Source: Ephemerocybe angulata | Lineage: Eukaryota; Basidiomycota; Agaricomycetes; Agaricales; Psathyrellaceae | Assembly (NCBI GenBank): GCA_013368325.1 | Contig: JAACJK010000001.1 | Location: forward strand, 744,001 to 808,000 | Direction: 5' to 3' | Length of the DNA stretch: 64,000 nucleotides | In this document: positions 17,678 through 55,309 of the stretch, one piece after another | Position numbering within the stretch: position 1 is the stretch's first letter | Layout: each line of letters starts with the position of its first letter | Translations under genes and position numbers: made by a program | Notes under the pieces: model-generated | Databases searched by the model: none | What the model saw: only the letters and a program-made list of their open reading frames with translations | Told to the model about the DNA's origin: nothing

Positions 17678-19450
17678 ATGGCTGAAAACGCGTTCAAAAC
17701 GGTCAGCGAAGCCTTAGCACCAACCCCCTTCACCGCCCCCGCAACACGCGCTCTAGTCGAGCAATACGGCACCCCCTCCGTTGTCGAGTACGAAAACCAA
17801 ATCGCCTTGCGAATCCTCGAGCTGGAACACGACATTCGTGTGCTCAAGACATGCCGAAATTCCAATCGCCCCGTCAACCGCCTCCCCGTCGAAGTCCTAT
17901 CGCACATCTTCCTCGTTCTCTACCGGACAGTGCAGACAGAAGTTGAAGAAGGCCAAAAAGGCTTCTGGATCTACGCGACACATGTCTGTAGGCACTGGAG
18001 GGCCGTGGCGCTGGGCTGCGCGGCTCTGTGGTGCGATTTCGCGTTCGACATGAACGGGGAGCTAATGCGGACGATCCTTGCCCGCTCAAAGCACCTCCCG
18101 ATCTCTGTCTGCCTGAAGTGCGACTGGGGAACGGACACGAAAGCGCTCGGCGAGGTCTTATCGCATACAATGCGCATCCGCCATCTCGATCTCTCGAGTT
18201 GGACTCGGTGGTACACCCCTTATCATTTCGTGCTGGCGCGCATGGGCCCATGCGCGCCTTTGCTCACGACACTCAGGCTGTCTATTTCCTATCCAACACC
18301 CATGATCGAAAGAAGCCTACCTGAAAAATTTCTGAGGGATGGCGCGCCTATTCTCAAGCACCTTACTTTGAAGAACTTTGACTTCCATTGGGCGAGGATC
18401 CCTTTCCCGCCTACATTGACAACTTTGCATCTCGAACAGAACTTACTAGTAAACAAATCATTGGGCCTTCCGAATTTCGCCAAAATGCTCGAAACCTTTA
18501 GAGGTCTGCCGCTCCTTGAAGCCCTGACTCTGGATGAGATCTTCCCGGAGGACAGGTTCCAGCCAGGCATGATGCCAGTGACCTTCTCCAATCTCGAGGA
18601 CTTGACTCTTACAGGCCGCGGCCGTACTATTGGGAACTTCCTTCTTGGAATCCGTGTACCGAAGTCAACGTTCATCGACATCACGTTCAATGACAAGGAC
18701 GAATGGATCTCAGAAGTTGACGCCTGTGTCGCTAGCATCCGAGAGCTATGGAGAGACGATCCATTAGAGTGCCAGTGGGCGAAGGACAGCCTCGAATTTC
18801 TCGACTTCACTGCATCCGCCAACTCCCACCGGAATTTCGCCTTCGGCTTCCATGACAAAGAGCTCTATTGGGAGCACGACGACCCGAATCATCTGAACGT
18901 CAATTTTCTATCCTCCTCGCCTGGCAACCTTGATCTTGTTTTCTTGACCTTCTTCAAGGAACAATTCAACTTCGACGGCCTTACGACGCTAGATCTCACG
19001 GGCAACTCTCAGCTCGCGTGCCGCCCAGCGCTTGAAGGCGTTTTTGCCCACCTACCGAAGTTGGATTCGATCTCGTTCTGGGGATGCGACGTGGTAGACT
19101 TCCTTCACATTCTTGACGGCGACCCTGCCTGTGCCGAGCGTTTCGACTCAGAAGAGATCTCCACTGCTGATCCAACTTTCCCTGCCCTTCACTCTCTGGA
19201 GATTGGAGCCCAACGCTTCAGAGGGAAGAGAATCGACACCATCATCCGGGTTCTGGGAAAGCGACCAAGGGGACATCGGATCGGCTGCCTCACCATTGAA
19301 GACTGCATTAACATTGACAAGACGGACGCTGAAAAAATCAGGGACGCTCTCCCGGACCTCCACACCTTCGTCTGGGATGGACCGGTCATTATGGACAATC
19401 CCGACTGCCTCAAAATGCTTAATGATGTCCTGGGTGAACTGGAATTTTGA
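17678..19450 (+). CDS. F-box protein A (intact paralogue)
   Basis: Single exon, 590 residues. Residues about 43-60 form a heptad helix (ILELEHDIRVLKTC); 66-115 are an F-box-like domain (NRLPVEVLSHIFLVL, then THVCRHWRAVALGCAALW); the rest is a leucine-rich-repeat-like body ending in FVWDGP...LGELEF. F-box proteins bind Skp1 and present substrates to the SCF ubiquitin ligase; the variable LRR body selects the target. It is closest to gene D and also resembles B, C and fragment E. No lesion was seen. The start MAEN..K.VSEALAPTPF is shared with D, which fixes the ATG. The shared leader contains an ACGCGT element and a GGTAAG site that could be a 5'-UTR intron donor. Confidence 0.85.
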   Translation: MAENAFKTVSEALAPTPFTAPATRALVEQYGTPSVVEYENQIALRILELEHDIRVLKTCRNSNRPVNRLPVEVLSHIFLVLYRTVQTEVEEGQKGFWIYATHVCRHWRAVALGCAALWCDFAFDMNGELMRTILARSKHLPISVCLKCDWGTDTKALGEVLSHTMRIRHLDLSSWTRWYTPYHFVLARMGPCAPLLTTLRLSISYPTPMIERSLPEKFLRDGAPILKHLTLKNFDFHWARIPFPPTLTTLHLEQNLLVNKSLGLPNFAKMLETFRGLPLLEALTLDEIFPEDRFQPGMMPVTFSNLEDLTLTGRGRTIGNFLLGIRVPKSTFIDITFNDKDEWISEVDACVASIRELWRDDPLECQWAKDSLEFLDFTASANSHRNFAFGFHDKELYWEHDDPNHLNVNFLSSSPGNLDLVFLTFFKEQFNFDGLTTLDLTGNSQLACRPALEGVFAHLPKLDSISFWGCDVVDFLHILDGDPACAERFDSEEISTADPTFPALHSLEIGAQRFRGKRIDTIIRVLGKRPRGHRIGCLTIEDCINIDKTDAEKIRDALPDLHTFVWDGPVIMDNPDCLKMLNDVLGELEF

Positions 19451-21800: not shown

Positions 21801-21938
21801 CAATAGGGGCCTCCATATCGCAAACTGAACGCCCACAAATAGCGTGCCTGACTCAAGTATAACGAGATGCGCCGATATCACAGGCGGCACAGGGTGCTTA
21901 AGAACGACGACCACCACCACCGGAGGGCGCAAAGCACG

Positions 21939-23869
21939 ATGCGGGTGCCCCTCCTCCTTGGAGCGCTCACCCTCTCCTCGGCCCACCAAACGCCCTTCCT
22001 GACTCCGACTGCACCAAACCCACTCCTCACCCCACCCAGCCCAAACTCTACGCATGCCCTTGTCTTCAACACGCTCTCCTCCCTCCTGAGCTTCTGGCCC
22101 AACACGCGCTATCGCAACGGGCACACCATCGTCCCGGGCACCATCCCCGCAGGCACCTTCCTCTACCACGGCACCTCCACGCACGCCGTCCCCAGCACAC
22201 CCGAATGGACCGCGCTTGACGCGGAGTTCAGCTATATCTTCTGCCATGCACAGCGCCCGGGCCCTCCAAGCGACAACGGCGGGTGCTGGCACCTCACCCT
22301 TCTGGCTGTGCGCGAGCTGAAGGTGTTGTATTTCGATGGTGCGAGTGCGGATAAGGTGTTTGGGGCGCTGGATGCGCAGGATTTGATTGTGTATGGGGAG
22401 GAGTATGGGTGGGATGGGAGTGATAGAGATACGGTGGAGAGGGTGTGGGATGAACCAGAGAGATTGAGGAGGTTGTGTGAGTGGGGTGAAAAGTACTCTT
22501 TGGACGGGTTCGTGCGGATGCAGAGCTCCTTGTGCGTACCCACTCTCATTTCCATCCACTCTAAACTGATAAGCAAAACAGCGAAGTAATGCTCTGCAAC
22601 TTCACCTCCCCCTCCCTCACCCCCATCTCCTTCCTCAACCTCGTCTCAGGCCTGCAATCCCCCACATCCCACAACGCCTCCCTCTCCCAACCCGATGCCC
22701 CAGACCAAACCACGCTCATCCACCTTCACCGCGGACTCGAAGCCGGCACTATCCACGGCTCCCCGCGCACAGGCCGCACGCCCGAAACGCGGGTGCACCT
22801 CGACTGGACGCGCTTGCTTTCCTTCTACGACACGTCCCTCTTCCCCTCCCTCGTCGCTGGCCGCGCACGCGCCGAGGCCAAGGCTTCGACCCAGCATGCC
22901 ACGGATGGCAGCCTCACGAGCGTCCTGCACGCCTGGCAGCACACGCACCGGGGCACGCACCGCGTCGGCGTCCTGGGCGGGATATCGCGCACGGATCGCG
23001 AGACTCTCCTTACGCAGCTCGACGCGCTACTCTCGCCGCCGCACGCACCTGGAAGCGGCGTACCCTGGCCCGCGCTCTACGCGTCCTTGGTCGACCGCTA
23101 CGCCGAGCGTCTCGAGCTGCTCTGGAACTTACTCGTCCACCCGCCGTTGCACTCCTCACCTACTGAGGACACGCTGTCGACACTCCGCAACACGCACGCG
23201 TACGTCGACGGCATGCTCACGCCATACCTCCTCTACACCCTCCACCGGCCTCCGCCCTCCAACATCCCATCTGCCCTGAAGAGCGAACATATCTGGGCCC
23301 TGCCAATCCTTCACACATGCTCCTCCCACACTGCGCCATCACACCCCGCGCTAGAGAAGACCTATACCCCCTCCGAATGGCTTATTTCGCAAGCCTTGAA
23401 CGCGACGGGGCACGAGATCTGCCGCACGCTCGTACTGCTCTGGGCAATCGGCGTCGAAGTAGGGCTCGCGTCCCCTCCCTCGAACGAGACACCCACCGAT
23501 GCCGACCTCACAACCCTTCACGAAGCATACAAAACCACGCTGGCGGCCCTCCTCACACACCTCGACTGGTCCCTCCGCTGGTTCAAATGCACCTCGCCCT
23601 CCCCTACTTCAAATGAGCCCGAAAGCGATCCTAACCCGGGCGACGGCTGCCCATACTCCGAAACGTGCTACCTCCCCACCTGGCCTCTCTTCCACAACCT
23701 CTACCCGGGCCTACCGGGTATTCCGAGCAGGAAGTGGCCGCCGCCTAATAATGGCAGCCCGTCTGTGTTCTTTGACAACGATGAGGATGAGGAGCACCCG
23801 GACTTCTCGGAATGGGAATATCCTGCGCCGCGGTGCATTAGGCGGATCCTTCCTTTTGACCTTCCATAG
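21939..23869 (+). CDS. Secreted protein of unknown function
   Basis: Two exons, 21939-22531 and 22582-23869, with a 50-nt GTGCGT..ACAG intron; 626 residues. The start at 21939 is preferred over the in-frame ATG at 21867 because MRVPLLLGALTLSSA is a good signal peptide. The N-terminal part has NGHTIVPGTIPAGTFLYHG and PEWTALDAEFSYIFC; after the intron FEVMLCNF. Later Cys residues (CPYSETCYLPTW) suggest disulfides. I recognise the general look from fungal secreted hypothetical proteins but cannot name a function. The LYHGTS motif resembles the HG(T/S) strand of ADP-ribosyltransferase folds, a weak similarity only. A partial inverted copy of its first exon and promoter lies at 36920-37740. Confidence 0.75.
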
Positions 23870-24456: not shown

Positions 24457-26265
24457 TTACTCACCCAGAGCACGAGCGATAGCCGCATCAAACTTCTCCC
24501 CAGCTTCAACCACCATCCTCTCCCTCGCCCCATCACACACCTCTCTCCACTCGCCCTCAAAATACCCCAAATACGCAGTCCTTCGAAGTAAACCAAACCA
24601 CTCCTCCGCAAACGGATGGCCAGGGGCACCCGCATACCCCCACGGCTTCGCAGTATAAGGCTGCACCCACGGATTCAACACAATATTCAAAGCCGGATGC
24701 ACAGGCCCTGTAAAATGGACAATCCCCGGGTCTACAAGAGCCCCCTTGTCCACCCAATGTCTCCCGGCACCGTCCGACTGAGCGTACGTGCCCAACCCCT
24801 GCGCATTCCACTTCAGATTGATCTCCTTCCATTCGCCAGCGAAATGCACATTCAGCGCGTCCTGGTCTGCATACCCAGATCCCATCATCTCTCTACACCT
24901 ATCTTTCAAGCTGTCCATCCCCCCACCCAAGCGCATCTTCGCAAGGTCCATGAGCAGGACCCCGGCATTGAAGTACTTCCCTCCATTCGCTGGGATTCCA
25001 GAATGTCCAAGGGGATGTCCGACATCAAGCGCAGCGCCAACCGCACAGCCCTCAAGGTCGGTATTCCACAGCGGGCGCACGTCTCTCCGAACGAGGGTGT
25101 CAGCGTCGAGGTATAGCATGCGCTCGAGAGGCGCGAGACACGCCAGGTCGATCTTCGCCCACACCGGTCCTCCGAGCTCCGTCGTCAGACTCCCGGCAGC
25201 ATCAAGGGGGATTATGTTGAGAGTGACTGTGTCCGCGCGGTGGGACACGGTGAGGTGTAGGCGTTCCCTGTCGAGCGCTGTGAGACCGCAGTCTAGGAGG
25301 TATATGCTTATCCTCCCAGGCGTGTGGTCTAACAAGCTCGTCAGGAGAACGGAGAGGGGCATGGCGAAGGCGGAGTCGGCTGTGACTCCAACGTTCACGC
25401 CATACTCAAAGGCACCAGGAAGGCCCTCCCGGCGAGGAAGGGAAGGAACTGAGGCTGAAGCCGCCGTGGCAGAGACAGGAAGCAGGTACCCCAAACACAT
25501 GTCGACGGTCTTCCTCAACACCACCTGGTACTCCCTCCCTTCCCCCTCGACTCCTTTCTTCGCACTCAGCCTTTCATACTCTCCAAAATGCAGCGCCAGG
25601 AACGCGTCGATCCCCCGCTTCGGGTGGAGGATCGATGTCTGGGGCTCAACCTCCCACAGATAGTCGTCGAAAATAACCAGCCCGCCCTTCCTCGTCAACC
25701 TCCATGCCATCTCGCCATCCAAGAACGTGTCGTCGGAGCGGTGGCTTCCGTCCACGTATACCCAGTCGAATCCCTGCTCCATAACCTCCGACCCAACGGC
25801 GGCAAGACCGTCCGCAGCAACCGCCTCGTCCAGCAGCTTCGTCAGAGCGGTAAAGCTGAACTCAGGGATGATCCGGAAAGTCTCGCCCGTGAGCTCAAGG
25901 TTATGCCTCAACCGCTCATACCTCTCCCTCCCCTCCTTAGTCCCGAACAAATCAAAGTGGTCCACACATACAATCTCCCCCTTGTTGCCACGTTCAATCA
26001 AGTTGTTGGGGCTACCCGTAGAATTAGCGCCGTCGACCTCGGCGACGTTGCGGCGGCGGGAAAGATTGAGGAGCTCGGTGCAGAGGAAGACCGCTGAGCG
26101 GCCTTCCCATGACCCGATCTCTAGGACCCGCGCGCCGTTTCCAGCTGTGAAGGAGGACGTGGTTACGTTGGAGAAGAGCGAGCGCCAGTGGCCGACATTG
26201 TGCGAGAACCAGTCCTGGCTCTCCGTAAACCTGTATCCCTCGGCAGCATTGGAGGAGGTGTCCAT
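24457..26265 (-). CDS. Methyltransferase-glycosyltransferase 8 fusion protein
   Basis: Single exon, 602 residues. Residues about 35-240 are a class I SAM-dependent methyltransferase: motif I VLEIGSWEGRSAVF, then FDWVYVDGSHRSDDTF and GGLVIFDDYLW (Methyltransf_24 type). Residues about 290-560 are a GT8 (glycogenin/LgtC-like) domain: NVGVTADSAFAMPL, AKIDLACLAPLERMLYLDAD (DxD metal site), YFNAGVLLMDL, DQDALN and IVHFTGPVHP, the variant of the family's HxxGxxKPW end motif. No signal peptide or membrane segment is seen. It probably transfers a sugar from a UDP-sugar and methylates a glycan or linked acceptor; acceptors are unknown. It lacks introns and faces the epimerase/GT2 fusion 645 bp away, suggesting a shared promoter and pathway. 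Confidence 0.85.
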   Translation of the reverse strand: MDTSSNAAEGYRFTESQDWFSHNVGHWRSLFSNVTTSSFTAGNGARVLEIGSWEGRSAVFLCTELLNLSRRRNVAEVDGANSTGSPNNLIERGNKGEIVCVDHFDLFGTKEGRERYERLRHNLELTGETFRIIPEFSFTALTKLLDEAVAADGLAAVGSEVMEQGFDWVYVDGSHRSDDTFLDGEMAWRLTRKGGLVIFDDYLWEVEPQTSILHPKRGIDAFLALHFGEYERLSAKKGVEGEGREYQVVLRKTVDMCLGYLLPVSATAASASVPSLPRREGLPGAFEYGVNVGVTADSAFAMPLSVLLTSLLDHTPGRISIYLLDCGLTALDRERLHLTVSHRADTVTLNIIPLDAAGSLTTELGGPVWAKIDLACLAPLERMLYLDADTLVRRDVRPLWNTDLEGCAVGAALDVGHPLGHSGIPANGGKYFNAGVLLMDLAKMRLGGGMDSLKDRCREMMGSGYADQDALNVHFAGEWKEINLKWNAQGLGTYAQSDGAGRHWVDKGALVDPGIVHFTGPVHPALNIVLNPWVQPYTAKPWGYAGAPGHPFAEEWFGLLRRTAYLGYFEGEWREVCDGARERMVVEAGEKFDAAIARALGE

Positions 26266-26823
26266 CGTAGTGAGCTGTAGATGTGTGGTAGTTGCAAATG
26301 GTATGCCAGTGATGGGTGCTTGAATGTAGGGGGCCGATTGCTATTCAAGTTGATGTGGACTCATGAGGGTCGCTCGAACTGACGACGCGATAACGGAGAT
26401 ACAGCAGTATACAGCATGACGACATCCTTCCGCCCACTTCGCAGAATTCAAGGCTTCTATTAGGGTCCCCTACCCAATTCCTGAGCAGAAATCAGCGAAT
26501 AGGGCCCATCTGACCTCGGGCGCTTAAAGATTAGCTTCACGTTACCCACAGCGTGCTGCGGCATTCCCCCTTTCATTCACATCTAACGCGATAAGGACGT
26601 CTCCTCGTGTGAAGGCTCCGCAGCAGAAGAGCAGAATTGGGGTCCTCGAGTTTAAGTTGGAGATATTTAGGCCTAAGAACGTGCCTCGCGATAGAGAAGT
26701 ACACACCTCGGGTGTCTATTTCTTTCTTCTCACCGATCGTCCGACATCATGTCTAGATAGCAGCGGATCCCATATCTGATTATATTTGGTGTTACGCTGC
26801 CTTTCGCGGAGTGCAGGCTTTCA

Positions 26824-26829
26824 TATATA
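26824..26829 (+). promoter_or_regulatory. TATA-like element
   Basis: TCATATATACA lies about 80 bp before the ATG at 26910 of the epimerase/glycosyltransferase gene. Confidence 0.4.
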
Positions 26830-26909
26830 CAGGGCCGAGCGAGTATGCCTCATTTGCACTCATCAGCTTTCTTTGAGCATCGCACCCCCCAACTCGTATC
26901 GAAGACTTA

Positions 26910-29900
26910 ATGCCACCTCTGTATAAACGTGTTCTCATTACAGGCGGTCATGGATTTTTAGTACGTACCAGCTCCTAGTACAGACGTGAGGCATCTTATC
27001 AGATCTAACTCCGCCACAGGGATCCTATGTCGCAAACGCACTCCATCGGTCTGGTGAATATGACCTTGTGCGCATAGTCGATAAGAGCCCCAAGCCGACC
27101 TTCTTCGAGTCGGTGGAGATCTCCCACGAAGCCATCGTGGGGGACCTTCACGACCCCTTCGTGCTCCAATCCTCCCTTGCTGACATCGAACTCGTGTTGC
27201 ACTTTGCTGCCAACATGGGAGGAATGGGCACCATCCACCCCCAGAACGACTTTGACATATACACTGACAACCACATGCTGACCCTCGCTCTGCTCCGTGC
27301 CTGTATTGCTGCAGGTGTCAAGGGATTCTTCTACGCGTCGAGCGCGTGCGTCTACCCCGAGCACCTGCAGCAGTCCACGTACAATTCGGATTCGGATTCG
27401 GATGTATCGCTCAAGGAGGAAGACGCTTTCGCCTGTCCTCAGGCGAACGCGCCTCCTCAGCCTCAGGGTCTCTATGGCCTCGAGAAGCTCAACACAGAGC
27501 TGCTCTTAGCCCAGTTCAAGTCGCCCCTCGACATTCGTATTGCCCGATTCCACAACGTCTACGGCCCCGGGGGAACTTACATGGGCGGCCGCGAGAAGGC
27601 CCCCGCTGCTCTCCTCAGGAAGGCTGCAGCCCTCACCCTCCTGTCCCCATCCGACCGCTCTGTCCATCCCGACCTTATGCACATGGAGCTCTGGGGAGAC
27701 GGATCTCAGCGACGGAGCTTCCTTTACATCGACGACGCCGTCGACGGCATACTCCGACTCCTCCGCAGTGATTACACCTGTCCACTCAACATCGGGTCAG
27801 ACACCTCCATCTCCATCCACGACCTGTGTACCCGCGCTCTGGAATGCGCGAGCATCGACCCGAGCGCCGTTGAGATCAAGACCATAGTCGACCGGCCTGT
27901 GGGAGTTGGCTGCCGCAACTCCGCCAATACGCTCGTGAAGGCGACTCTGCACTGGGCGCCTACAGTCTCCATCGAGGAAGGCATGCGAAGGACGTACACC
28001 TGGATCCACTCCGAGATCCGCCAGCGACTTGAGGCACTGCCCGAAGGTGCCGCGCCCCGAGTCTCCTTCGTCCAGCAGCTTCAATCGAGCGAAGTCATCG
28101 ACCTCTCATCTAACACCGTCTCCTTCGCCATCCTCCTACCCATCACGTCCAGAAGCAAGACGGCCGAGCCTCACCAGTGCCTCGAAAATCTGAAGAAGTT
28201 CGCCAAGTCTCTCATCCGCACCACTCGGGACGACCTCGTACTCGGCGAGCCCTTCAACGGAGGGACGACGAGGTTTGAGATCAGGATTTACCTCGCCGTC
28301 GACCACGACGATGACTACCTCCTCCGGAACAAGCCTGATGACCTCCTTCGTTGACTCGGCCTCACAAACGTCAAGACCCAGATCTGTAACCACCCGAAGG
28401 GTCATGTCTGTGCGCTCTGGAGAGACTGTGCTCGTTCTGCATGGGCGGACAGATGTGACTACTATGTTCTCCTTGGTGACGACGTTGAGATGTTGGATGA
28501 CAGATGGATGCGTCGGGTACACGAAGAGTTTCTCTCCCTCGCGCATGGGCGCCAGGTTCCCATAGGCGTTGGGTGCATTGCCTTCACGGATACCTCCTTC
28601 CCTGGGATGCCCACCTTCCCCGTCGTCCACCGTCGGCATATGGACACCTTCAATGGCGAAGTCGTCCCCGACATATTCATCAACCAAGATGGCGACCCGT
28701 TCCTCTTCCAGCTGTACCGAAGGTGGAACTGCTCGAAGATGATTGATTGCAGGGTTTCGAATGCGATTGGAGGGAGCGTCGAGGCACGGTACGAGAAGAG
28801 CCACGCCAAAGGATGGACATTCGAGACCCTCGATAATGCAGTCGCCCGTCTCGCTGAGACTCTGTATATAGCCAGTCCTCCGACCATCACCCTTGACATC
28901 GTCGTCCCATGCTACCGAGTCGATCTCACCCTCCTCACGCGCATCCTCGAGCTTGAAGCCCGCCGACCCTCTCCGTCATGTTTATTATCATCGTCGATGA
29001 TCCCAACTCCCCTAACATCATCCACCTCGAACGACTCTTCAGTCACCGCGTCGACGTCCGTATCCGGGTGAACAAGTCGAACCTTGGAGCTTCAGCGTCC
29101 CGCAACTGCGGTATGCTGGAGGAGTCCGCTGCGGACTGGGTCCACTTCCTCGACGACGATATCGTCCCAGACCCCAACCTTCTCTTCGAGGTCGAGAAGG
29201 TCATTCGCGCCGATCCCACCGCAGCAGGCTTCGTGGGCAACTGCCAGTTCCCCGTCGCGCGCACGATGTTCCAAGCTGCTGCCCATCTCGCTGGAGTCAC
29301 GTACTTCTGGGATATAGCGACGAAGATGGATACGGATCTCCCATGGGGCGTTACGGCCAACCTCATTTTCAGGAGGAAGAACGACGGGGTGGAGTTCGAC
29401 TTGCGGTACCCGAAGACGGGAGGAGGGGAAGATATAGACTTTTGCATGCTGAAGCGCGAGGCATCGATGAAGAGCGGCGGAGGGAAGCTCGAACCTGCGC
29501 CGAAGGTCATCGTCACTCATCCATGGTGGAGCGAGGGGAAGAGGTCGTACTGGAGGTTTTATATGTGGTCCATTGGTGACGGAGCGTTGGTGATAAGGTT
29601 CCCGGAGGCGACCTATTGGGCTCCGAACACCCTGGAGGCAGCGGTGGTCATCATTCCCATCTTCCTGGCGTGCTTCCTCCAGAACCTGACCGTTAGAACC
29701 CTCGTGGATACTGTGATGCGACTGGGGATCGCATTGCTTGCACTCCTGGTGGCGAACGTCATCCACGACCTTTACCGCTACTTGGTGCGACACCCAGAGA
29801 GGATGCGAGAGTTGAAGCTTGATTTGAAGTTCCGGGGTGGACCTTGGCTGTGGGCAGCTCTAGTGGAAGGCACTTTCATTCGGATTTTCAGTGAATGTGG

Positions 29901-30069
29901 TCGATTGCGTGGAGTGGTTGCCAGGAAGGAGTGGGATGCATTCGGAAGAAGGTTTGATTGGTTTGCTGGGAGGTGGGGTAAAGGTCCTAGGAATGAAGAA
30001 AGAAGGAACAATGTTGAACGGGTTGCGCTTTGGCTTTTCGTGTGGGGAACCGTGAACATGAGCTGGTAA
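26910..30069 (+). pseudogene. GDP-mannose 3,5-epimerase-like / double glycosyltransferase fusion with a stop and a frameshift
   Basis: Exon 1 is 26910-26960; a 59-nt GTACGT..CACAG intron (26961-27019) splits the Rossmann motif GGHGFLGS. Residues 1 to about 345 are an extended SDR with the GDP-mannose 3',5'-epimerase signatures NMGGMGTI, SSACVYPE, YGLEK and GGREKAPAA. A first GT-A-like domain follows (IYLAVDHDDDYLL, then YYVLLGDDVEMLDDRWM), then a GT2 domain (TLDIVVPCY, NLGASASRNCG, FLDDDIVPD, GGGEDIDFCM) and two C-terminal membrane helices (29630-29780). TGA at 28352-28354 interrupts the first GT domain in frame; both sides are conserved. Near 28960 a one-base loss moves the frame from LELEA to SVMFIIIVDDP. 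Without these lesions it would be about 1030 residues. It is decayed, polymorphic or misread; introns removing the lesions were not found. Confidence 0.75.
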
Positions 30070-30765: not shown

Positions 30766-32454
30766 ATGTCCTCGATTCCTCTCGACATCGCAACTGTCTA
30801 TCCAGCCACCATGCCTTTGTCAATAGTCCCCACCGATACTACAGACACTCCACACTCGACCACAAATGAGGCAGCACCAATTAATAGACTCCCTCCCGAG
30901 CTCCTCCTAGAAATATTTCAACACGCTTCGGGGAAGAGTCAAAGTACCCACCAGACAGAAGCCTGGGTCACCTTCAGCCACACCTGCCAATACTGGCGCA
31001 GCATTGCCATCGGTTTTCCGCGCGCCTGGTCAAACATCTCCTTCAATCACGGTCCTGATTTTGCAGACATGCTTCTCTCCCGGTCTATTGACAGTGCCTT
31101 GCCACTGACCGTCCACCTGACCCCGACGCCGGCCTCTCAGGCTGATGATATGACCTGGGGCAAGGCAACAGAGGAAGTGCTCATGCGAGCCATATCGGAG
31201 TCAGCCCGTCTGCAGTCTGTCCGCATTCACACACCGCTAAAGAAGCACGCGCTTCGCCGCGTCTTACGTAGCTGGAAAAAAGCGGACCAGCCTCTACTTG
31301 TGCTTGCGCATCTCGATATCCGAGGTAGAGAGGGAAAGCTCACAGATGCCCGCGAGCTATTAGACCATAAAGTCATGAATAGAGGTGTCCCCGCCCTCCG
31401 TTCTATTGACCTCCGGGACGCTTATATCGGCACCAAGCTGCGGTTCCAAGCCGAACTAGGCGCACATATACACTGCCTGTCCCTCTGGAGAGTCTATGTC
31501 AGTGATTCACCTGACATGGCAACCGCCGCTCGACTTATCTCAGTCACTGAGCTCCTAACATGCCTGAAGGGCCTCCCACATCTCGACGACCTCTCAGTTT
31601 CCCGCCTCCTCGACATCCATCCAGACGCCTCTATCCTCCCACTCACTCTAAAAAACCTCAAAAAACTCGAGATCACCGAACCTACAACACTCACAGCCTC
31701 GATGCTGCTCAACCTCCTCCGAATCCCAAACGTTCATACGGTCCACATCGCCCTCTTGAAGCCGCTCCGCGGCCCCCGCTACCTAGCTTCACTCCTACGC
31801 AGCTTAAATACTGCCTGGGGACCAACACTCGACGACGGCTTCAGCGATAGTATCCAGTACACCTCCACCCCCAGCGAGCCTACACTTAATGCTTCCACCC
31901 TGGACGTCTTCGAATTCCAGTCCAAACCCAACTCGTGTCCCGTGCACAAGCACCCCGCTCAGATTCTAACAGTAACCGTGCCTGAGAACCCAAATCTCTC
32001 CTTCATCTCCCTTCTCCACACCTTCAGGGAAGGTCTAAACCTATACCCCGCTCAAACCATATCCCTCTGCCCACCCCCGGGCTACCCAGGCCTCCTCGGC
32101 AGTCCCGACCCTAACAGGCACTGGTACTACGCCCTCTGGCATTTCCCAGCGCTAGAGTGCTTGATACTTCAAGGGGAAGCCGTGTCTCCCAATATACTCA
32201 CCATAGCCACTGCATTGCACCTTTTCTTATCACTGGAAAGGGTCGTCATACGCAGAACTGCGTTCCCCCTTGGGCTCAGAGGGTCGTCTGTAGCCCCATT
32301 TCTGGCTGACTTCATCAAGCAATTGTGGAATCGTACACCCAAACTTCGCTCTCTCGAGTTTGTGGAATGCCCCGGGGTCACGGAAGCTGACTGCCTCTGG
32401 CTTAGTGCGCAGGTCAGACAGAGTGTCGAGATCATATGGGACCGCCATGCTTAG
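30766..32454 (+). CDS. F-box protein, divergent family member
   Basis: Single exon, 562 residues. After a Thr-rich N terminus, residues about 42-88 are an F-box (INRLPPELLLEIFQHASG, then FSHTCQYWRSIAIGFPRAW). The remainder is leucine-rich-repeat-like, with regular hydrophobic spacing (LPHLDDLSVSRLLDI, LKNLKKLEI). The final segment around LWNRTPKLRSLEFVECPGV matches the usual end of fungal F-box proteins. It lacks the LELEHDI coiled coil and the C-terminal signature of genes A-D, so it belongs to another branch. Likely SCF substrate receptor; substrate unknown. TATA box close upstream. Confidence 0.8.
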   Translation: MSSIPLDIATVYPATMPLSIVPTDTTDTPHSTTNEAAPINRLPPELLLEIFQHASGKSQSTHQTEAWVTFSHTCQYWRSIAIGFPRAWSNISFNHGPDFADMLLSRSIDSALPLTVHLTPTPASQADDMTWGKATEEVLMRAISESARLQSVRIHTPLKKHALRRVLRSWKKADQPLLVLAHLDIRGREGKLTDARELLDHKVMNRGVPALRSIDLRDAYIGTKLRFQAELGAHIHCLSLWRVYVSDSPDMATAARLISVTELLTCLKGLPHLDDLSVSRLLDIHPDASILPLTLKNLKKLEITEPTTLTASMLLNLLRIPNVHTVHIALLKPLRGPRYLASLLRSLNTAWGPTLDDGFSDSIQYTSTPSEPTLNASTLDVFEFQSKPNSCPVHKHPAQILTVTVPENPNLSFISLLHTFREGLNLYPAQTISLCPPPGYPGLLGSPDPNRHWYYALWHFPALECLILQGEAVSPNILTIATALHLFLSLERVVIRRTAFPLGLRGSSVAPFLADFIKQLWNRTPKLRSLEFVECPGVTEADCLWLSAQVRQSVEIIWDRHA

Positions 32455-38706: not shown

Positions 38707-40560
38707 TTAAAAGTCTAAGTCTGCCCCGTTACGATTTGAAAGCTCGTCGAACATATTAACCTCCTTTTTAGTCACCACGTCATCCCAGTTGATCCAAATC
38801 CCCGGGACGCCTTCCATAATTCTAGCAACATCTGTCTCGTCAAGATTAATGCAGTCGTATATCTGCAGCGTTCCTAAACGATGACCGGATGGCCGTTTGT
38901 TCAGCACACGGATGATGTCGTCTATCTGCTTCTTATTGAAAGTCTTGCGGGACATTTCTATCACCTCGAGTGCTGGGAAGCACGGAACCACCGCCGCTGG
39001 TGGTACGGCCCCTGGCGAAGGTGCAGAGGGCTCGGCCACGACATTGCAGGCCGGGTCGTTGTCCATAATGTGCCAAAAGCCCCACATATCGCATCCGGCA
39101 AAGGAGATGACCTCAATATTCGGAAGGCGGGCGAAGGTGTTTTCGAAAAGGGGGTAATGAGTCAGCTTGCTGTCTCCAATGAAGTAAAGTGTGGTGAGCG
39201 CGGTGAAGTCGAAGTACGTTTGAACGTGAGTGAGGAAGGCCAGGTTGGGGCTGCCGTACGGGAAGCGGGCGAAGCTGACTGTTAGGTGTGGGTGGCCTTC
39301 GTCCGGGTCCAGCTGGTATCTCCAGTCCAGTGTCTCCGGTACTCCGCCGAATTTGAATTCGAAATGGTTACGTTCGTCTTGGCGTGATACTTGGAGAGAG
39401 TAGATGTCGTCCTTCGTCCAGTCCAGTGGGTCGTCTACCCACAGCTCCTTGATCCTTTTGACGCACGAGTCATCAGGTTGGGCCCACTCCTCCGCGCCAG
39501 TAAACTGGATGTCGATGAAAGTTGTCTTTGGGACCCGGATTCCCAAGAGGAAATTGCCAATTGCAGGTCCCGAATCCTTAAGAGAGAGATACTCGAGTTT
39601 CTTGAACGCGACTGGTCTCATGCCTGGAAACGAGTCAAGTATAAGATGATTAAGATCTGGGAGTATTGTTCGGAGAGTGAGGCGCTCAAGGCGCGGCAGT
39701 CCTCGCAAGGTCTCGAGCATGGCGGGAAATTCGGGACACACAGTGAGGGCTCCTCCGAGATGCAGCGTCTCCAGCGTGCTGGAGAAAGGGATCCCCGACC
39801 AATGCAGGTCAAAGTTGTCCAACTTGAGGTGCTTGAGAGCGGGCGCGCCTACTTCGAGGAAGCCTTCAGGAAGATACTCGTCTTCCTTGAACTTTGTGTA
39901 GGACACGGACAGCGTCGTCAATAAGGGCGCACTCGGGCCCATGCTCTCCAATGCAGCGGTGAGCGACACTGGTCCGTAGCGCTTATTTGACTCAGGAATG
40001 AGGAACCACGTGGCAGATTGGGTCGGCTTTGGGTGGATGCGGGGTGAGAGCTCAACGCACCGCAGGCGCGTTGTCTGGGATAAGACTGCCTCAAGAGCCT
40101 CTACATCCGTTGCGCCATCGCATTTCAGGGTTACTGAGAGCGGGAGATTCTTCGAGCGCGGGAGGATCGTACGCATGAGCTCCCCGTGCATATCGAACGC
40201 GAAATTTGTCCAGAGAGCTGCACATCCTAGAGCGACGGCACGCCAGTGCCGGCAGACGTGCGTGGAGCGGATCCAGAGGACTTTGTGGTCCTCTCTGTAT
40301 TCGCGCTCCATCGTCCAGAACAGGAAGAGGAAGATATTTGAAAGAACCTCTGGGGGAAGACGGTTGACACTGGGTGTGGAGTTTTGGCATGTCTTGAGGA
40401 TGCGGATGTCGTGTTCCAGTTCGAGGATTCGTGAGGTGAGTTTCTCTTTGTACTCGGGAATGGAGGGGGTGCCGTATTGCTCTACTAAAGCGCGTGTTGC
40501 GGGGCCGGTGAAGCTGGTTGCCAGAACTTCGCTGACTGTTGCGAATGGTTTTTCAGCCAT
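38707..40560 (-). CDS. F-box protein B (intact paralogue)
   Basis: Single exon, 617 residues. Same layout as gene A: MAEKPFATVSEVLA, heptad helix ILELEHDIRILKTCQN, F-box VNRLPPEVLSNIFLFLFW with THVCRHWRAVALGCAALW, then a long LRR-like body. The C-terminal half has SFAGCDMWGFWHIMDNDPAC, a Pro-rich insert, VLNKRPSGHRLGTLQIYDC and the end NGADLDF, all shared with fragment E. Predicted SCF substrate receptor. It is divergent from pseudogene C (370 bp apart) and convergent with the UNC-45 fragment, which its stop codon nearly abuts. No lesion seen. Confidence 0.85.
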   Translation of the reverse strand: MAEKPFATVSEVLATSFTGPATRALVEQYGTPSIPEYKEKLTSRILELEHDIRILKTCQNSTPSVNRLPPEVLSNIFLFLFWTMEREYREDHKVLWIRSTHVCRHWRAVALGCAALWTNFAFDMHGELMRTILPRSKNLPLSVTLKCDGATDVEALEAVLSQTTRLRCVELSPRIHPKPTQSATWFLIPESNKRYGPVSLTAALESMGPSAPLLTTLSVSYTKFKEDEYLPEGFLEVGAPALKHLKLDNFDLHWSGIPFSSTLETLHLGGALTVCPEFPAMLETLRGLPRLERLTLRTILPDLNHLILDSFPGMRPVAFKKLEYLSLKDSGPAIGNFLLGIRVPKTTFIDIQFTGAEEWAQPDDSCVKRIKELWVDDPLDWTKDDIYSLQVSRQDERNHFEFKFGGVPETLDWRYQLDPDEGHPHLTVSFARFPYGSPNLAFLTHVQTYFDFTALTTLYFIGDSKLTHYPLFENTFARLPNIEVISFAGCDMWGFWHIMDNDPACNVVAEPSAPSPGAVPPAAVVPCFPALEVIEMSRKTFNKKQIDDIIRVLNKRPSGHRLGTLQIYDCINLDETDVARIMEGVPGIWINWDDVVTKKEVNMFDELSNRNGADLDF

Positions 40561-42743: not shown

Positions 42744-45058
42744 TCAGAATTCCGGCTCGCCCATTACATTGCACAATAGTTCGAGCTCCGACGGGGGTTT
42801 GTCCTTCGTGACTTTTCTATCCCAGATGAAAGAGTCGAGGTCCGGGAGAGCCTCATTAGGGTGTTTCACGTTGCGGTTTTTGAGCTGTTTTTCGTCGTGT
42901 TTTTGACGGCGTTTTTGAAGCGGTTCCGGGGTCCTAGAAGCGTGTTTTCGAAAAGCGACTGCGTTTTTCGGCTGTTTGCAAGAGCAGCTCATACCCTGCT
43001 TTTGCATCCACTGCTTGTTTTTCGGGTCTGTTTTCCGCCTGTTTTTTGTTCTGTTTTTCTCGTAGAAGGGCAGCGGTGGCAATAGCTGAGCTTCCATAGC
43101 GCCAAAATACTGCCATGCTCATGGTTTGAACATACGACCTCCCCTTTCCACCCAATGCTCGAAAACACATCGAAGGGTACTGGCTCGCGGGTTTCACGTT
43201 AGCACTGGTTTTTGACTTGTTTTCCTCACCTCTGCGGAAAAACCAATTAGAAAAACGCGTCGAAAAACAACCTCTAAAACGACCCAAAAACCGCAACGTG
43301 AAACACCCTATTGATTTTTTCAGCATCCTTCTCGTCGATGTTGTTGCAGTTTTCAATTCTGAGAAAGCTGATCCGATGTCCCTTGGGTCGCTTTTTGAGG
43401 ACTCGGATGATAGTATCGATCCTCTTGCCCTTGAAGTGTTGACCGTCAATTTCCAGGTTCCTGAGGGCGGGGAAGCTTGGTTCCGCGACACTTGGATTTG
43501 CAGTGCGCTCCGAGTTAGAAAGGTCGTCGCAGGCGGGGTCAATATCGAGAATCCACAAAAAGTCCCTCATGTCGCATTTCGAGAACCGAATCGTTTCCAA
43601 GATCGGCAGGTGGACAAAGGTATCCACCAGGACCGCGTGACGTGCCAATCGGCTCATACCCGTGAAACAGAGTGTCGAAAGGGTGGTAAGATTGAAGTGC
43701 TGTCTGAAGGAGGCCAAAAACGCGAGTTCCGGGTCGCCAAGCGAAGCAGGGGAAAGGGAGAAGTGAACCGATAGATGTGGCTTGAACATATCGCAGTGTT
43801 CTTGGGTGAGCGGCTCGGGCGCATCATCGAACCTGAACGCGATAGTTAGGTGGGAGTCCTCCACTGCGATGAAGTTGATGGATTCAATGCTGTCCTTCAC
43901 CCACTCCGATGGATCATCTCTCCATAGGCCCCCAATTGACTCGACACACGGATCAACCTGTGGGGTCCAGTCTGCGTCACCCTGGGCAAGACCAGTGAAC
44001 GTAAGGTCCACGAAAGCTGTCTTTGGCACCCGTATTCCAAGGAGGAAATTCCCAATCATAGGCCCCCAGTCCCAGAGGGTGAGGTACTTGAGCTTCGATA
44101 ATGTTACTGGCTCCATCCCTGGGATCGGCTGATATTTGTCCTCTGGAAGCATCTCGAAAAGCGTGAGGTCTTCAAGGAGCGGCAGGCCTCTAAACGATTC
44201 TAGCATCTCGGCGAATTTTGGGTAGGCTGATACGCTCCGGCCTAGATGCAAAGTCGTTAATGCCGGTGAAAAGGGAATCCTCGCCCAATGCAAGTCGAAG
44301 TTTTTCAGTTTGAGGTACTTGAGTGCAGGTGCGCCGTCCTTCAAGAAGTGTTTGGGCAGACATTCGTCATCCGTAAGGGTTGCATAAGACACAGACAGGG
44401 TCTGGAGCAAAGGCGCACTCGGGCCCATGCTCTGCAGTGCGAATTCGTAAGACAGCGGATTATACTTTCGATTCGCATCGCGGTCGAGGAGTCGGAGATA
44501 AAAGCTGGATTGCCATGACAGTTGAGGGTGAACGCGGGGAGAGAGATTGAGATGGCGGATGCGCGTCGTATGTGACAAGACCTCGCCAAGAGCCTCCGTA
44601 TCCGTCGCATCATCGCACTTCAAACTGACCGAGATGGGGAGGTTCTTCGAGCGGGGAAGGATCGTCCGCATCAGCGCCCCGCGGATGTCGAACGCGAAAT
44701 CGCACCACAGAGCCGCACAGCCCAGCGCTACGGCTCTCCAGTGCCGACAGACGTGCGTCGCGTGTATCCAGAAGACCTTCTGGTCCTCTGGTGCTTCAGC
44801 CTGCATCGTCCAGAAAAGGACAAGGAATACGTGGGATAGGACTTCGGCAGGGAGGCGGTTGACGGGGCGATTGGAGTTTCGGCATGTCTTGAGAATAAGA
44901 ATGTCGTGTTCGAGCTCGAGAATTCGCGAAGCGAGCTGGCTTTCGTATTCTAGAACGGAGGGAGTACCGTATTGCTCGACTAGAGCGCGTGTCGCGGGGG
45001 CGGTGAAGGGGGTTGGCGCCAAAGCTTCGCTGACGGGTTTGAATGGTTTTTCAGCCAT
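42744..45058 (-). pseudogene. F-box paralogue D, split by a MITE near its 3' end
   Basis: Starts MAEKPFKPVSEALAPTPF like gene A, with coiled coil LELEHDILILKTCRN, F-box VNRLPAEVLSHVFLVLFW and LRR-like body. The frame reads DEKDAEKIN at 43311 and then enters a 450-bp insertion, stopping at 43274. The expected ending (ALPDLDSFIWD through GEPEF) appears at 42856-42744 beyond the insertion. Before the insertion the reading frame was continuous across the TA target. The split product would have 594 residues with about 36 family residues replaced by RVFHVAVFGSF, so it might still fold; I call it a disrupted gene. Confidence 0.85.
42859..43308. mobile_element. 450-bp MITE with TA target duplication (Tc1/mariner-like)
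   Basis: Both ends begin GGGTGTTTCACGTTGCGGTT(TTTG), a 24-bp perfect terminal inverted repeat that continues imperfectly for about 50 bp (runs of GTTTTTCG). It is flanked by TA at 42857-42858 and 43309-43310. Removing the element and one TA restores a conserved coding frame in gene D, which proves an insertion. There is no transposase frame, so it is non-autonomous; the TA duplication points to a Tc1/mariner-type mobiliser. Confidence 0.9.
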
Positions 45059-46413: not shown

Positions 46414-48165
46414 TCATGAATCATTCTGAGAACCCATTGGCAGAGGCGCGGGAGTAGCGTCAGGGAATCTCGGAAAGGGGTATCTTCTTTCAAGAGGTTC
46501 TGGCAGACCAGCCCGATCCACAGGCTCCGCAGCCCTGCGCCTCAAAGGGCTGACCCCGATCGTCGGAATGGTCGTGCAGCTGCTCGATGCAGGTGCCGGG
46601 TGAGCTGTTGTGGGTGCTACCCCCTGGAACCAGGTGGAAGTGCCGTAGACACCCATTGGGATCGCCGCGTCTCCGGCGCACTCTTCGAAGACCCCTCCAC
46701 CGTAGTTCGCTGGTATGTTCTGTTTCCCGGAGAAATTAAACTCAAAGCCAGATGAAATAGTATATATGATGAATTCACGTACCCAATAGCAACCCATAAC
46801 ATCGTAGATATGGTTGCATAACTCCTTCGATCTGGGGCCAATGCAGGCGCGGATGCAGAATTCATTCTCAGAGATGAATTCCGTCCATTCGTGGTACTGC
46901 AGGTTGAGGCCGAAGGTACTTCCGTAGAGCAGGCCACCGACTTAAACGGTCTCGTCAGTCGTTCGATACATACATTGACACAATATAATATACCCACTAG
47001 GGTTTCCTTTGCCTAGTAGAATGGTTCACCTGTCAGTCGAGGACTTCGACGACTTGAACAACAATTTAGACACATACCATCCGCGCCTCTGTTATCCAGC
47101 TCCCCTCCGCCATCTCCGCTCGGAATGTTCAGCTTCGTAAAGTCACCAACGCCAGTAATTTGTACGTATTCAGGCGTCCGTACGAAGTGCACCCCTCGTA
47201 ATGTCCCGTTGGGAATCGTGCGTGAACCTCTTCCTGATTTCGTACACCATGCGACCGCCTCCCGCTCGGTATCTCCGACAGCGCCAGGGTGGGGTGGTGC
47301 CCAAAGGCAAAAGTCAGTCGCGGAGCTACGTACGAGTCATACGAGTCAAATAAGAAGGAGCTGGAGAGGACTCGGATGGAAAACCTACTTGATCCAAGAG
47401 GTCTGGCAGTTCGCAGCCTGGTCGGTACCCGTTCCGCAGTTGTTGGTGCCAAATTGCCCGTCTTGCGACTTGATAGGTAGAGCATTGATAAGATACCCTG
47501 CGCTCCAGATTTGGTTGGGTAGTCGGTTGTAGCAGGCCCATATTTGTATCTAAAGGAGGGGAAAGTTAGTGTATGAGCGCCTGTCCTTCCTCTCAGTCTC
47601 CGTCGCGTTCTCCGACAACTCACCAACGTTCCATCCGCCTGATTTCCACCATCCACGTCGACGCATTTCCCCGTACCCGTCCACCCAAGGGTATTATCCC
47701 ACTTGCTGTAGTACCACTGCTGGTTCGCGTTGTTCGCAATGCATGTCCAGACTTGAAGCTTCGTCCCGTCCTGGTTCAGGCCCTTTTTCACGTCGAGGCA
47801 CTTGTTTCCGAAAACAACGACATTCCCGTCTCTAAACACCCACTTCTGGTTCGGGGAGCCCGTGCATGTTTGGAGAACCACAGGACTGCCGTCGCTGTTT
47901 GCCTGGGCGGTGAGGCATTTCTCTATCATTTCGACGTCAGTGGGAACGCTGCGGCTGACATTCAAGGACGAGGACACACGGTTGTTGATCTGCGGTTGGA
48001 GCAGGAGTTCCCCTATGAACCTGGAGAGCGATACGGGGTGAGATGTAAGTGGTGGTGGTCCTGGAAAGAGAGACGATTGATGTCAACGCACTCCGGTGTC
48101 TGACCCCTAACTTTGATCGTTATGGCAAGCACACCAAGCGCACGCAGGATACCCCGCATCGTCAT
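46414..48165 (-). CDS. Secreted ricin-B lectin domain protein, seven exons
   Basis: Exons 48165-48092, 48020-47624, 47549-47389, 47325-47078, 47012-46998 (only 15 nt), 46940-46783 and 46719-46414 join in phase; 452 residues. The start MTMRGILRALGVLAITIKV is a signal peptide. Residues about 50-175 form a ricin-B beta-trefoil with the three QxW repeats NQKW, NQQW and NQIW. A second conserved part follows: DFCLWAPP, VQITGVGDFTKLNIPSGDG, YHEWTEF, NEFCIRAC, IYDVMGC and NIPANYGGGVFEECAGD, ending in an Ala/Pro/Ser-rich tail. This two-part architecture is common in wood- and litter-decay mushrooms; the second part has no named activity that I know. A carbohydrate-binding secreted protein is the safe call. 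There is no sign of a ricin A-type toxic chain. Confidence 0.85.
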
Positions 48166-54109: not shown

Positions 54110-55309
54110 CTAAACGTTAACCAAGTTGGCAACCCAGCGAACAGTCTTATCAACCGCCCACTGCCCACCAGAGAACGCAAAAATATCGGTGAGCTTCTGA
54201 ACAGGCCCAAAATTCCCATTCCCGTCATTGTACGACACCCAAACCGAGTTCTCCCCAAACCCAATGATATCAGCCGAGCCGTCCCCGGTGAGGTCAGCGA
54301 GGTACCTCGGATGCTTGTCCACGCGCCACCCTTGATCAAAGCCAAAGTCCTTGAGCGCAAGGAACGTAGGCTGGAAGGTGCCATCTCCATTGTTGCGCGA
54401 CACATAGACGCCTTCGAATCCAAATCCGACAATGTCGCCACGCCCATCACGGTTGAGGTCGGCGACGAGTCGAGGATGCTGATCGACCCTCCACCCTTGC
54501 TGGAAGCCAAAGTCGCTTACGGCGAGCCTGGGGGCTCGGAAAGAGCCGTCCCCATTGTTAAGAGCGACGTGGACGCCGGCATTTCCAAACCCAATGATAT
54601 CGACGCGACCGTCACCAGTGAGATCAGCGACGGTGCGAGGGTGGTTCTCCACCCTCCACTCTCCAGAATTATAGGTGAAATTGTTAGAAACGGACTTTCC
54701 GGGCAGGAACGTCCCGTCTCCCCTGTTGACAGCGACTATGACGGATGCGTTCCCAAACCCGACGATGTCAGGAAGGCCATCTCCAGTGGTGTCAGCGAGG
54801 AAACGGAGGTGGCGCTCGAGCCTCCACTCCCCCGCGTTATACCCGAACTCTCCAAGGGCAAGGCGGGTAGCGGAATAAGTACCATTACCGTTGTTGAGCG
54901 AGACCAGGACGCCTGGATCGGCGAATCCGATTATATCAACTAGACCTTTCTTCCGAAGGTCGGCGACAAAGCGAATGTGCCTGGTGTTGGTCCACCCATT
55001 AGCCTCACCGAAGTCGTTGATGGCGAGGAACTGGGGACCGAACGTATTATTCCCGTTATTGCGCGAAATGAAGACGCCAGCACCACCAAAACCAATTATA
55101 TCAGCCCGGTTGTTTCCAGTGGTGTCGCCGACGAGGCGAACATGCTTCTCGACACGCCAACCGCCTGCATTGTAGCCAAAGTCGCTGATGACCAGTCGGA
55201 TACCAGGACGAACAGAGTTTCGCAGTATGATGACGCCGTTCTGCCCGAATCCAACGATGTCAGCAGTACCGACTCGATCGACAGGTACTAGCGATAAGAA
55301 GTTAGACAT
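54110..55309 (-). CDS. Seven-bladed beta-propeller lectin (Psathyrella velutina lectin type)
   Basis: Single exon, 399 residues, made of seven repeats of about 56 residues. Each carries a DxTGDGxxDIxGFG-like calcium loop (TTGDGLPDIVGFG, LTGDGRVDIIGFG, LNRDGRGDIVGFG), a SRNNGNGTF/ALNNGDGSF strand and a WRVEKHVR-like strand. The first repeat starts ADIVGFGQNG and the last ends FGENSVWVSYND, closely following the 401-residue PVL, which binds GlcNAc and sialylated glycans. No signal peptide, as in other cytoplasmic mushroom lectins, which are thought to serve defence against grazers. Propeller closure looks complete and no lesion is visible. Second lectin gene in 9 kb. Confidence 0.9.
   Translation of the reverse strand: MSNFLSLVPVDRVGTADIVGFGQNGVIILRNSVRPGIRLVISDFGYNAGGWRVEKHVRLVGDTTGNNRADIIGFGGAGVFISRNNGNNTFGPQFLAINDFGEANGWTNTRHIRFVADLRKKGLVDIIGFADPGVLVSLNNGNGTYSATRLALGEFGYNAGEWRLERHLRFLADTTGDGLPDIVGFGNASVIVAVNRGDGTFLPGKSVSNNFTYNSGEWRVENHPRTVADLTGDGRVDIIGFGNAGVHVALNNGDGSFRAPRLAVSDFGFQQGWRVDQHPRLVADLNRDGRGDIVGFGFEGVYVSRNNGDGTFQPTFLALKDFGFDQGWRVDKHPRYLADLTGDGSADIIGFGENSVWVSYNDGNGNFGPVQKLTDIFAFSGGQWAVDKTVRWVANLVNV

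What the first reader, a model, noticed from the sequence alone, without database searches (positions are those of the whole stretch)
24457..30069. Divergent pair of fused glycan enzymes: methyltransferase-GT8 facing epimerase-GT-GT2
Two unusual fusions share a 645-bp intergenic region. One joins a SAM methyltransferase to GT8; the other joins a GDP-mannose-3,5-epimerase-like SDR to two GT-A folds and two membrane helices. Together they could make a GDP-sugar, transfer sugars at a membrane and O-methylate the product: a compact surface-glycan or glycolipid pathway. The epimerase type is best known from plants and bacteria, so bacterial or algal ancestry is possible.
Basis: partly seen in the sequence, partly recalled or inferred. 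Interest (0 to 1): 0.78.

Follow-up and report, generated by a model that had tools for sequence, protein, structure and literature searches.

The report
Paired mushroom sugar-chain enzyme genes
Two neighbouring mushroom genes, found side by side in a range of mushroom species, encode fused enzymes that probably make an unusual sugar (L-galactose) and build it into a methylated sugar chain at a membrane, although one of the two genes looks broken in this particular genome sequence.

Summary
Gene A (26265-24457, minus) is an intact 602-aa fusion of Methyltransf_24 and GT8. Gene B (26910-30069, plus) encodes a GDP-mannose 3,5-epimerase (GME) domain, a GT-A-fold domain without a Pfam match, and a GT2 domain followed by membrane helices. 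The gap between start codons is 644 bp.

Intact relatives exist. B shows no sign of long relaxed constraint, so the break is recent or an assembly error.

Both fusions occur across Agaricomycetes. In 23 of 26 named species seen in both (truncated) hit lists, A and B have contigs of identical length. Locus tags are consecutive in 7 of 8 legible cases. GME catalytic residues are conserved in 80-81 of 81 homologs; the fungal GMEs form one clade on a long stem.

Best reading: an Agaricomycete two-gene module that makes GDP-L-galactose and assembles an O-methylated, probably membrane-linked glycan from cytosolic donors. I saw no report of fungal GDP-L-galactose in the paper listings returned or in the passages I saw of a fungal nucleotide-sugar survey. 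Product and acceptor are unknown.

The parts
24457..26265 (-). Gene A: intact 602-aa fusion, N-terminal SAM methyltransferase (Methyltransf_24) + C-terminal GT8
   Evidence: aligned with 116 full-length relatives, window deviates at 3 of 125 positions that are >=95% conserved in them
25660..26121 (-). Methyltransferase motifs: SAM-binding EIGSWEGRS (26121-26095), VDHFD (25965-25951), YVDGSH (25758-25741) and FDDY (25671-25660), candidate SAM/metal/acid-base residues
   Evidence: positions; conservation; role of motifs recalled from class I O-methyltransferases
24703..25113 (-). GT8 active-site motifs: YLDADT (DxD, 25113-25096), FNAG (24972-24961), DQDALN (24867-24850), VHFTGP (24720-24703)
   Evidence: aligned to LgtC 1g9r, E 2.7e-14; positions; conservation; roles recalled
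26266..26909 (.). 644-bp intergenic region between the two divergent start codons
26910..26960 (+). Gene B exon 1 (MPPLYKRVLITGGHGFL, start of the NAD-binding GxxGxxG motif)
26961..27019 (+). Gene B intron 1, 59 bp, GT...AG
   Evidence: inferred from homolog continuity; no RNA data
27020..28030 (+). GDP-mannose 3,5-epimerase (GME) domain; catalytic motifs SSACVYPE 27338-27361, YGLEK 27473-27487, GGREKAP 27584-27604, GCRNSAN 27908-27928
   Evidence: structure match to 8sg0/2c59 in relative P0125
28073..28963 (+). Middle GT-A-fold domain (LLGDDVE 28469-28489, FINQDGDPF 28676-28702); interrupted by the TGA at 28352-28354
28352..28354 (+). In-frame TGA stop inside gene B
28957..28972 (+). Stretch in which the coding frame of gene B changes by one base
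   Evidence: relative P0124 is open across it
28901..30069 (+). C-terminal GT2 domain (VVPCYRV 28901-28921, HFLDDDIVP 29143-29169, TGGGEDIDF 29416-29442) plus C-terminal membrane helices
   Evidence: PF00535 E 1.2e-7; same domain at 648-745 of P0125; model of P0125; hydropathy

Best explanation
The pair is a two-gene glycan-assembly module kept together in Agaricomycetes. Protein B is a membrane-anchored, all-in-one enzyme. Its GME domain turns GDP-D-mannose into GDP-L-galactose (possibly also GDP-L-gulose) next to two GT-A glycosyltransferase domains. These put the L-sugar and a second sugar on an acceptor held at the membrane by the C-terminal helices. Protein A, with no consistent membrane segment, adds a sugar with retention from a UDP donor (GT8) and O-methylates the product with SAM. 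NAD, GDP-mannose, UDP-sugars and SAM are cytosolic (established knowledge), and I see no consistent N-terminal hydrophobic signal in either protein. Assembly is therefore most likely on the cytosolic face of a membrane, on a lipid-linked or lipid acceptor that is later exported. SHOWN here: domain content, catalytic residues, predicted folds, and recurrence of the pair. INFERRED: GDP-L-galactose as product, joint action on one glycan, cytosolic-face topology, methylated sugar in the product. In this genome B is interrupted (recent loss or assembly error), so the module may be inactive in this strain.
For: GME: E 3.1e-58 to plant GME against 3.2e-13 for the next SDR; profile of 81 homologs E 2e-98 against 8.2e-35; model of relative P0125 has TM(target) 0.87-0.89 to plant GME chains in rows 1-10. 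The catalytic Cys145, Tyr174, Lys178, Lys217 and Arg306 of Arabidopsis GME all align to identical residues and are conserved in 81, 81, 81, 80 and 81 of 81 homologs. Acidic motif residues of both GT-A domains are kept in 78-81 of 81. A keeps its MT and GT8 motif residues at >=95% in 116 relatives. Consecutive locus tags in Candolleomyces aberdarensis, C. efflorescens, Stygiomarasmius, Tulasnella, Pleurotus ostreatoroseus, Bondarzewia and Fibroporia (the Fibroporia neighbour is annotated as a 546-aa model that breaks off in the middle domain).
Against: No enzyme activity, product, localisation or expression is known. Fold matches of the middle domain are tied across enzymes with very different donors, so no donor is shown. 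GT8 donor specificity is also open: the residue aligned to LgtC Arg86 is a conserved Lys (the role of Arg86 is recalled). Coprinellus aureogranulatus has non-consecutive tags on two short contigs; Lentinula raphanica and Rhodofomes roseus show different longest contigs; Macrolepiota fuliginosa has A and a partial B on contigs of different length. 37 of 117 A rows show one and 2 show two hydrophobic segments, and 39 of 105 B rows show segments outside the C-terminus, by a crude scan. Gene B is broken in this assembly.
Confidence: 0.55

Rival explanations
1. A specific version: the pair belongs to the synthesis of the 3-O-methyl-galactose-containing heterogalactans of mushrooms. A would transfer alpha-D-galactose (GT8, retaining) and 3-O-methylate it; B would add the L-sugar or mannose branches.
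For: 3-O-Me-alpha-D-Galp in a (1->6)-alpha-galactan of Pleurotus placentodes (PMC8829048 abstract); 3-O-Me-Gal in Inonotus obliquus and cited reports for Pleurotus and Agaricus (PMC8000984 passages). A joins a GT8 with LgtC (galactosyltransferase) as best solved match to a methyltransferase. Pleurotus ostreatoroseus has consecutive A and B genes.
Against: No experiment links these genes to galactan. A has no obvious secretion signal, whereas wall heteropolysaccharides are usually made in the Golgi or at the plasma membrane (recalled). Methyl-galactose in the Pleurotus paper is assigned D, which does not need a GME. GT8 donor not shown.
Confidence: 0.2
2. Cytosolic protein glycosylation: A and B build an O-glycan on a cytosolic or nuclear protein, as in the Skp1 pathway of protists, where a GT2/GT74 enzyme and a GT8 alpha-galactosyltransferase (Gat1) act in the cytoplasm.
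For: No consistent N-terminal hydrophobic signal in A or B. [quoted passage not shown]
Against: B ends in hydrophobic segments in 103 of 105 homologs. No sequence relation to the Skp1 enzymes was tested. A GME is not part of the Skp1 pathway (recalled).
Confidence: 0.12
3. The genes are neighbours for other reasons (a shared promoter or slow loss of gene order) and act in unrelated pathways.
For: Divergent genes sharing a short promoter can stay together without a common pathway (established knowledge). Co-expression was not testable.
Against: Both proteins are glycan enzymes with complementary reactions. The pair is seen in listed species from Tulasnella and Gloeophyllum to Russulales, Polyporales and Agaricales (order names recalled).
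Confidence: 0.12
4. About this strain only, and not exclusive of the above: gene B is a pseudogene here and A is left over, as against assembly errors with both genes working. The confidence given is for a true loss of B.
For: One stop plus one frame change in one gene, more than expected from a clean assembly.
Against: At positions >=95% conserved in the family the window differs at 4 of 248 and the intact E. angulata protein at 4 of 245. Polarised lineage-only changes are 8 on the window side and 9 on the E. angulata side, with 22 unpolarised (two of the 8 sit at the frame change). So there is no sign of long decay: a loss would have to be recent. Reads were not available.
Confidence: 0.5

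Closest known systems
Plant and bacterial GDP-mannose 3,5-epimerases (Arabidopsis GME 2c59; Myrciaria dubia 8sg0; Methylacidiphilum GM35E, PMC6678494 passages)
   Same: Fold, NAD motif, YxxxK, catalytic Cys/Lys and Arg
   Different: The characterised enzymes are free-standing (recalled); here the domain is the N-terminus of a ~1000-aa protein with two GT-A domains and membrane helices. The fungal domain is its own clade.
LgtC and other GT8 enzymes (glycogenin, Gat1)
   Same: DxD, FNAG, DQD and H..GP motifs; E 2.7e-14 to LgtC
   Different: Fused to an N-terminal methyltransferase; donor and acceptor unknown
Methyltransf_24 / YrrM-like O-methyltransferases
   Same: Profile match, SAM motif and DGSH/FDDY motifs
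   Different: Fused to GT8; acceptor unknown
Bacterial-type surface-polysaccharide GT2 enzymes with membrane helices
   Same: GT2 profile and C-terminal helices
   Different: Same polypeptide also carries the donor-making epimerase
Skp1 cytoplasmic glycosylation (protists)
   Same: Multi-step glycan built by GT2-type and GT8 enzymes in the cytoplasm (PMC8724618 passages)
   Different: No membrane anchor, GME or methyltransferase there (recalled)

Membership tests
GDP-mannose 3,5-epimerase | Sequence closer to GME than to other SDR sugar epimerases | tested here: met
   E 3.1e-58 vs 3.2e-13; profile 2e-98 vs 8.2e-35
GDP-mannose 3,5-epimerase | Catalytic Cys145, Lys217, Tyr174, Lys178, Arg306 | tested here: met
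   identical in the window; 80-81 of 81 homologs
GDP-mannose 3,5-epimerase | Overall fold of GME | tested here: met
   TM(target) 0.89 to 8sg0 (relative P0125, not the window's own broken protein)
GDP-mannose 3,5-epimerase | Makes GDP-L-galactose | not testable with these tools
   needs enzyme assay
GT8 | GT8 profile with DxD and H..GP motifs | tested here: met
GT8 | UDP-galactose as donor | tested here: inconclusive
   LgtC is the best solved match, but LgtC Arg86 is Lys here
Methyltransf_24 | Profile match above cut-off and SAM motif | tested here: met
   54.7 bits vs 26.3
GT2 (C-terminal domain of B) | PF00535 match, DxD and GGxED motifs | tested here: met
   32.3 vs 23.3 bits
GT2 (middle domain of B) | PF00535 or another curated GT profile match | tested here: not met
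   0 families in Pfam and NCBIfam at E<=1 for 28073-28963; in the five relatives scanned the best GT2 stretch lies in the C-terminal domain; GT-A fold by model
Fucosyltransferase WrtF type (middle domain of B) | Stands above other GT-A enzymes in fold comparison | tested here: inconclusive
Skp1-type cytoplasmic glycosylation | Soluble enzymes acting on hydroxyproline of Skp1 | not tested
   only indirect: B has hydrophobic C-terminal segments in 103 of 105 homologs

The most novel reading that the evidence does not exclude
Mushrooms carry a conserved two-protein machine, encoded by neighbouring genes (divergent here), that makes GDP-L-galactose inside a membrane glycosyltransferase and builds an L-galactose-containing, O-methylated glycan on the cytosolic face of a membrane. 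This would be a fungal L-galactose pathway and an undescribed class of mushroom glycan or glycolipid, with assembly logic closer to bacterial surface glycans than to the fungal Golgi.
Probability: 0.4. Interest if true: 0.8.

Novelty: new variant of a known kind. Interest (0 to 1): 0.6.

Why it matters
If right, a large class of fungi (Agaricomycetes) makes an activated L-sugar that does not appear in the passages I saw of a phylogenomic survey of nucleotide-sugar enzymes in 491 fungal taxa (PMC8092308: passages; 'L-galactose' occurs 0 times in its main text). It would point to a mushroom glycan or glycolipid that ordinary composition analysis, which does not separate D- from L-galactose (recalled), would miss. 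It would also give candidate genes for sugar O-methylation in mushrooms; the abstract and passages I read on mushroom galactans describe them chemically and name no methyltransferase gene for them. The test is direct: express one domain, delete two genes, look for one sugar enantiomer.

Tried and rejected
Intron explanation for the interruptions in B: rejected, because relatives keep the residues on both sides of each place (P0124), leaving no room for an intron.

An intact second copy of B in this genome: not found (3 matches, two being the pieces of this locus, one at 32% identity elsewhere).

Long-term decay of B: rejected.

The other 462 were not seen. Viral contigs: 15 pattern matches, none confirmed.

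Naming the middle domain by sequence: scanned as one piece it has no Pfam or NCBIfam match; its pieces have no PHROGs match. By structure: tied matches only. No named family by these tools is not proof of a new fold; the fold is plain GT-A.

Unfused GMEs in Agaricomycetes: looked at ten short named GME proteins and two short B rows. P0185 and P0205 end at the start of GT2; most of the ten end inside the middle domain; P0249, P0253 and P0302 end with the GME domain, so unfused forms are not excluded.

Literature: I saw no paper describing either fusion, a fungal GME or fungal GDP-L-galactose in the listings returned (20 of 73; 15 of 87; 15 of 73; 8 of 8; 15 of 92; 7 of 7; 0; 10 of 10; 2 of 2) and 68 (4 of 4); listings show titles and abstract starts. 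Only the held open-licence library was searched. L-galactose in Ganoderma was looked for in PMC6269047 (passages): it appears there only as a reagent. PMC8787198 and PMC6678494 (passages) have 0 words beginning 'fung'. The passages of PMC10481521 and PMC11880470 that I saw name no GME.

Not available: DNA of other fungi (so no orientation of the pair elsewhere), RNA-seq, reads, and homolog rows below the best 120 of 377 (A), of 1300 (B) and of 7989 (GME domain).
Full report
WHAT IS THERE. The window is part of a 58.7-Mb assembly of 232 contigs. It is a fungus close to Ephemerocybe angulata: the nearest named homolog of gene B is 96% identical over 90% of the query. Gene A is an intact 602-aa frame at 26265-24457 (minus) with Methyltransf_24 and GT8 domains. 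Gene B starts 644 bp away on the plus strand: exon 1 26910-26960, a 59-bp intron, exon 2 from 27020. It encodes a GME domain, a GT-A-fold middle domain, a GT2 domain and C-terminal hydrophobic helices.

B IS INTERRUPTED HERE. A TGA stands in frame at 28352-28354, and the frame changes by one base between about 28957 and 28972. The E. angulata relative P0124 runs through both places, and the search of the own genome shows the same two pieces and no intact copy. At positions that are at least 95% conserved in 112 relatives, the window deviates at 4 of 248 and P0124 at 4 of 245; at the 149 positions conserved at 99% neither deviates. Polarised against Coprinellus, 8 changes are on the window side and 9 on the E. 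angulata side, with 22 unpolarised, over 941 compared sites; two of the 8 lie at the frame change itself. So either the loss is recent or the interruptions are assembly errors.

THE PAIR IN OTHER FUNGI. All 120 listed A rows (one is the window itself) carry both Pfam domains. Of the 120 listed B rows, 118 carry the epimerase and GT2 domains as I read the list; P0185 and P0205 are shorter models that stop at the start of GT2. I compared contig lengths of 119 A rows and 120 B rows: 28 lengths are shared, representing 23 named species and 5 unnamed sources, with shared contigs as short as 7,160 bp. Equal length of the longest contig is my stand-in for the same contig; in Gloeophyllum the B row is the short P0205. 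Three named species in both lists have different longest contigs: Lentinula raphanica and Coprinellus aureogranulatus, and Rhodofomes roseus (read by hand). Hence 23 of 26. Consecutive locus tags: EST38_g6027/6028, MD484_g8286/8287, VKT23_015706/015707, FRB94_010531/010532, EIP86_010338/010337, EW146_g8856/8857, FIBRA_06121/06122; the Taiwanofungus partner tag is cut off in the list. C. aureogranulatus (g8017/g5488, contigs of 19.6 and 24.6 kb) is the eighth legible case and is not consecutive. Macrolepiota fuliginosa has a partial B on a contig of another length than its A. For the 23 species about 0.46 shared contigs would be expected by chance if genomes are 40 Mb (size assumed). The lists are the best 120 of 377 and 1300, so absence elsewhere cannot be read from them.

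ORIGIN. In a tree of 137 GME domains (22 fusion rows, 114 of the 120 short ones, and an Arabidopsis fragment) the fungal ones fall in a clade of 40 rows, eight of them unnamed, with SH-aLRT 100 on a stem of 0.8; the Arabidopsis enzyme and the bacterial and algal rows lie in the other part (quick method, midpoint root). Viral contigs: none confirmed. On this evidence the fusion looks fungal; the donor of the GME domain, if any, is unresolved.

MECHANISM. Substrates (GDP-mannose, NAD, UDP-sugars, SAM) are cytosolic (established knowledge). A shows no consistent hydrophobic segment (0 in 78 of 117, 1 in 37, 2 in 2). B shows 1-3 C-terminal segments in 103 of 105, and further ones elsewhere in 39 of 105. 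The simplest reading is a membrane enzyme that makes its own GDP-L-galactose and transfers it on the cytosolic face, with A extending and methylating the product. The link to mushroom 3-O-methyl-galactans (PMC8829048 abstract; PMC8000984 passages) is attractive but unproven, and in the first of these papers the residue is assigned D.

NOVELTY. In the listings I saw (partial for 19, 21, 22 and 40) no paper describes these fusions or a fungal GME. The survey PMC8092308 names ten interconverting clades, and the functions listed in the passages I saw do not include GME. The parts are known kinds; the combination, its fusion order and its recurrence as a pair are new to what I could search.

Noticed in passing
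window 17678-19450, 30766-32454, 38707-40560, 43274-45058: Several F-box/LRR-like genes flank the pair; F-box-like profile found for the first two, the other two look alike by sequence only (not scanned).
   Followed up: partly
window 47132-47977 (-): Ricin-type beta-trefoil lectin domain (E 1.8e-18).
   Followed up: no
window 54113-55309 (-): FG-GAP repeat protein with four repeat stretches, a possible lectin or propeller.
   Followed up: no
window 21867-23869 (+): Two consecutive open frames (240 and 426 aa) meeting at 22589, no Pfam match; may be one gene with an intron or another frame break.
   Followed up: no
G000:C60:32859-33125: The only other Methyltransf_24 match reported in the genome; carries a TGA inside.
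   Followed up: no
P0018 and P0040 (Gymnopus androsaceus, contig of 195,760 bases): Two MT-GT8 proteins on contigs of the same length as the one that carries gene B (P0129): a likely local duplication of gene A.
   Followed up: no
P0124 (Ephemerocybe angulata): The annotated protein begins inside the GME domain, lacking the NAD-motif N-terminus, and its C-terminal tail differs; probably a gene-model error.
   Followed up: no
P0254, P0255, P0259, P0319: Short metagenome GMEs grouped together inside the fungal clade; their source is unknown and could show the unfused ancestor.
   Followed up: no
P0249, P0253, P0302: Agaricomycete GME proteins of 306-325 aa that end with the GME domain: truncated models or truly unfused copies.
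   Followed up: partly
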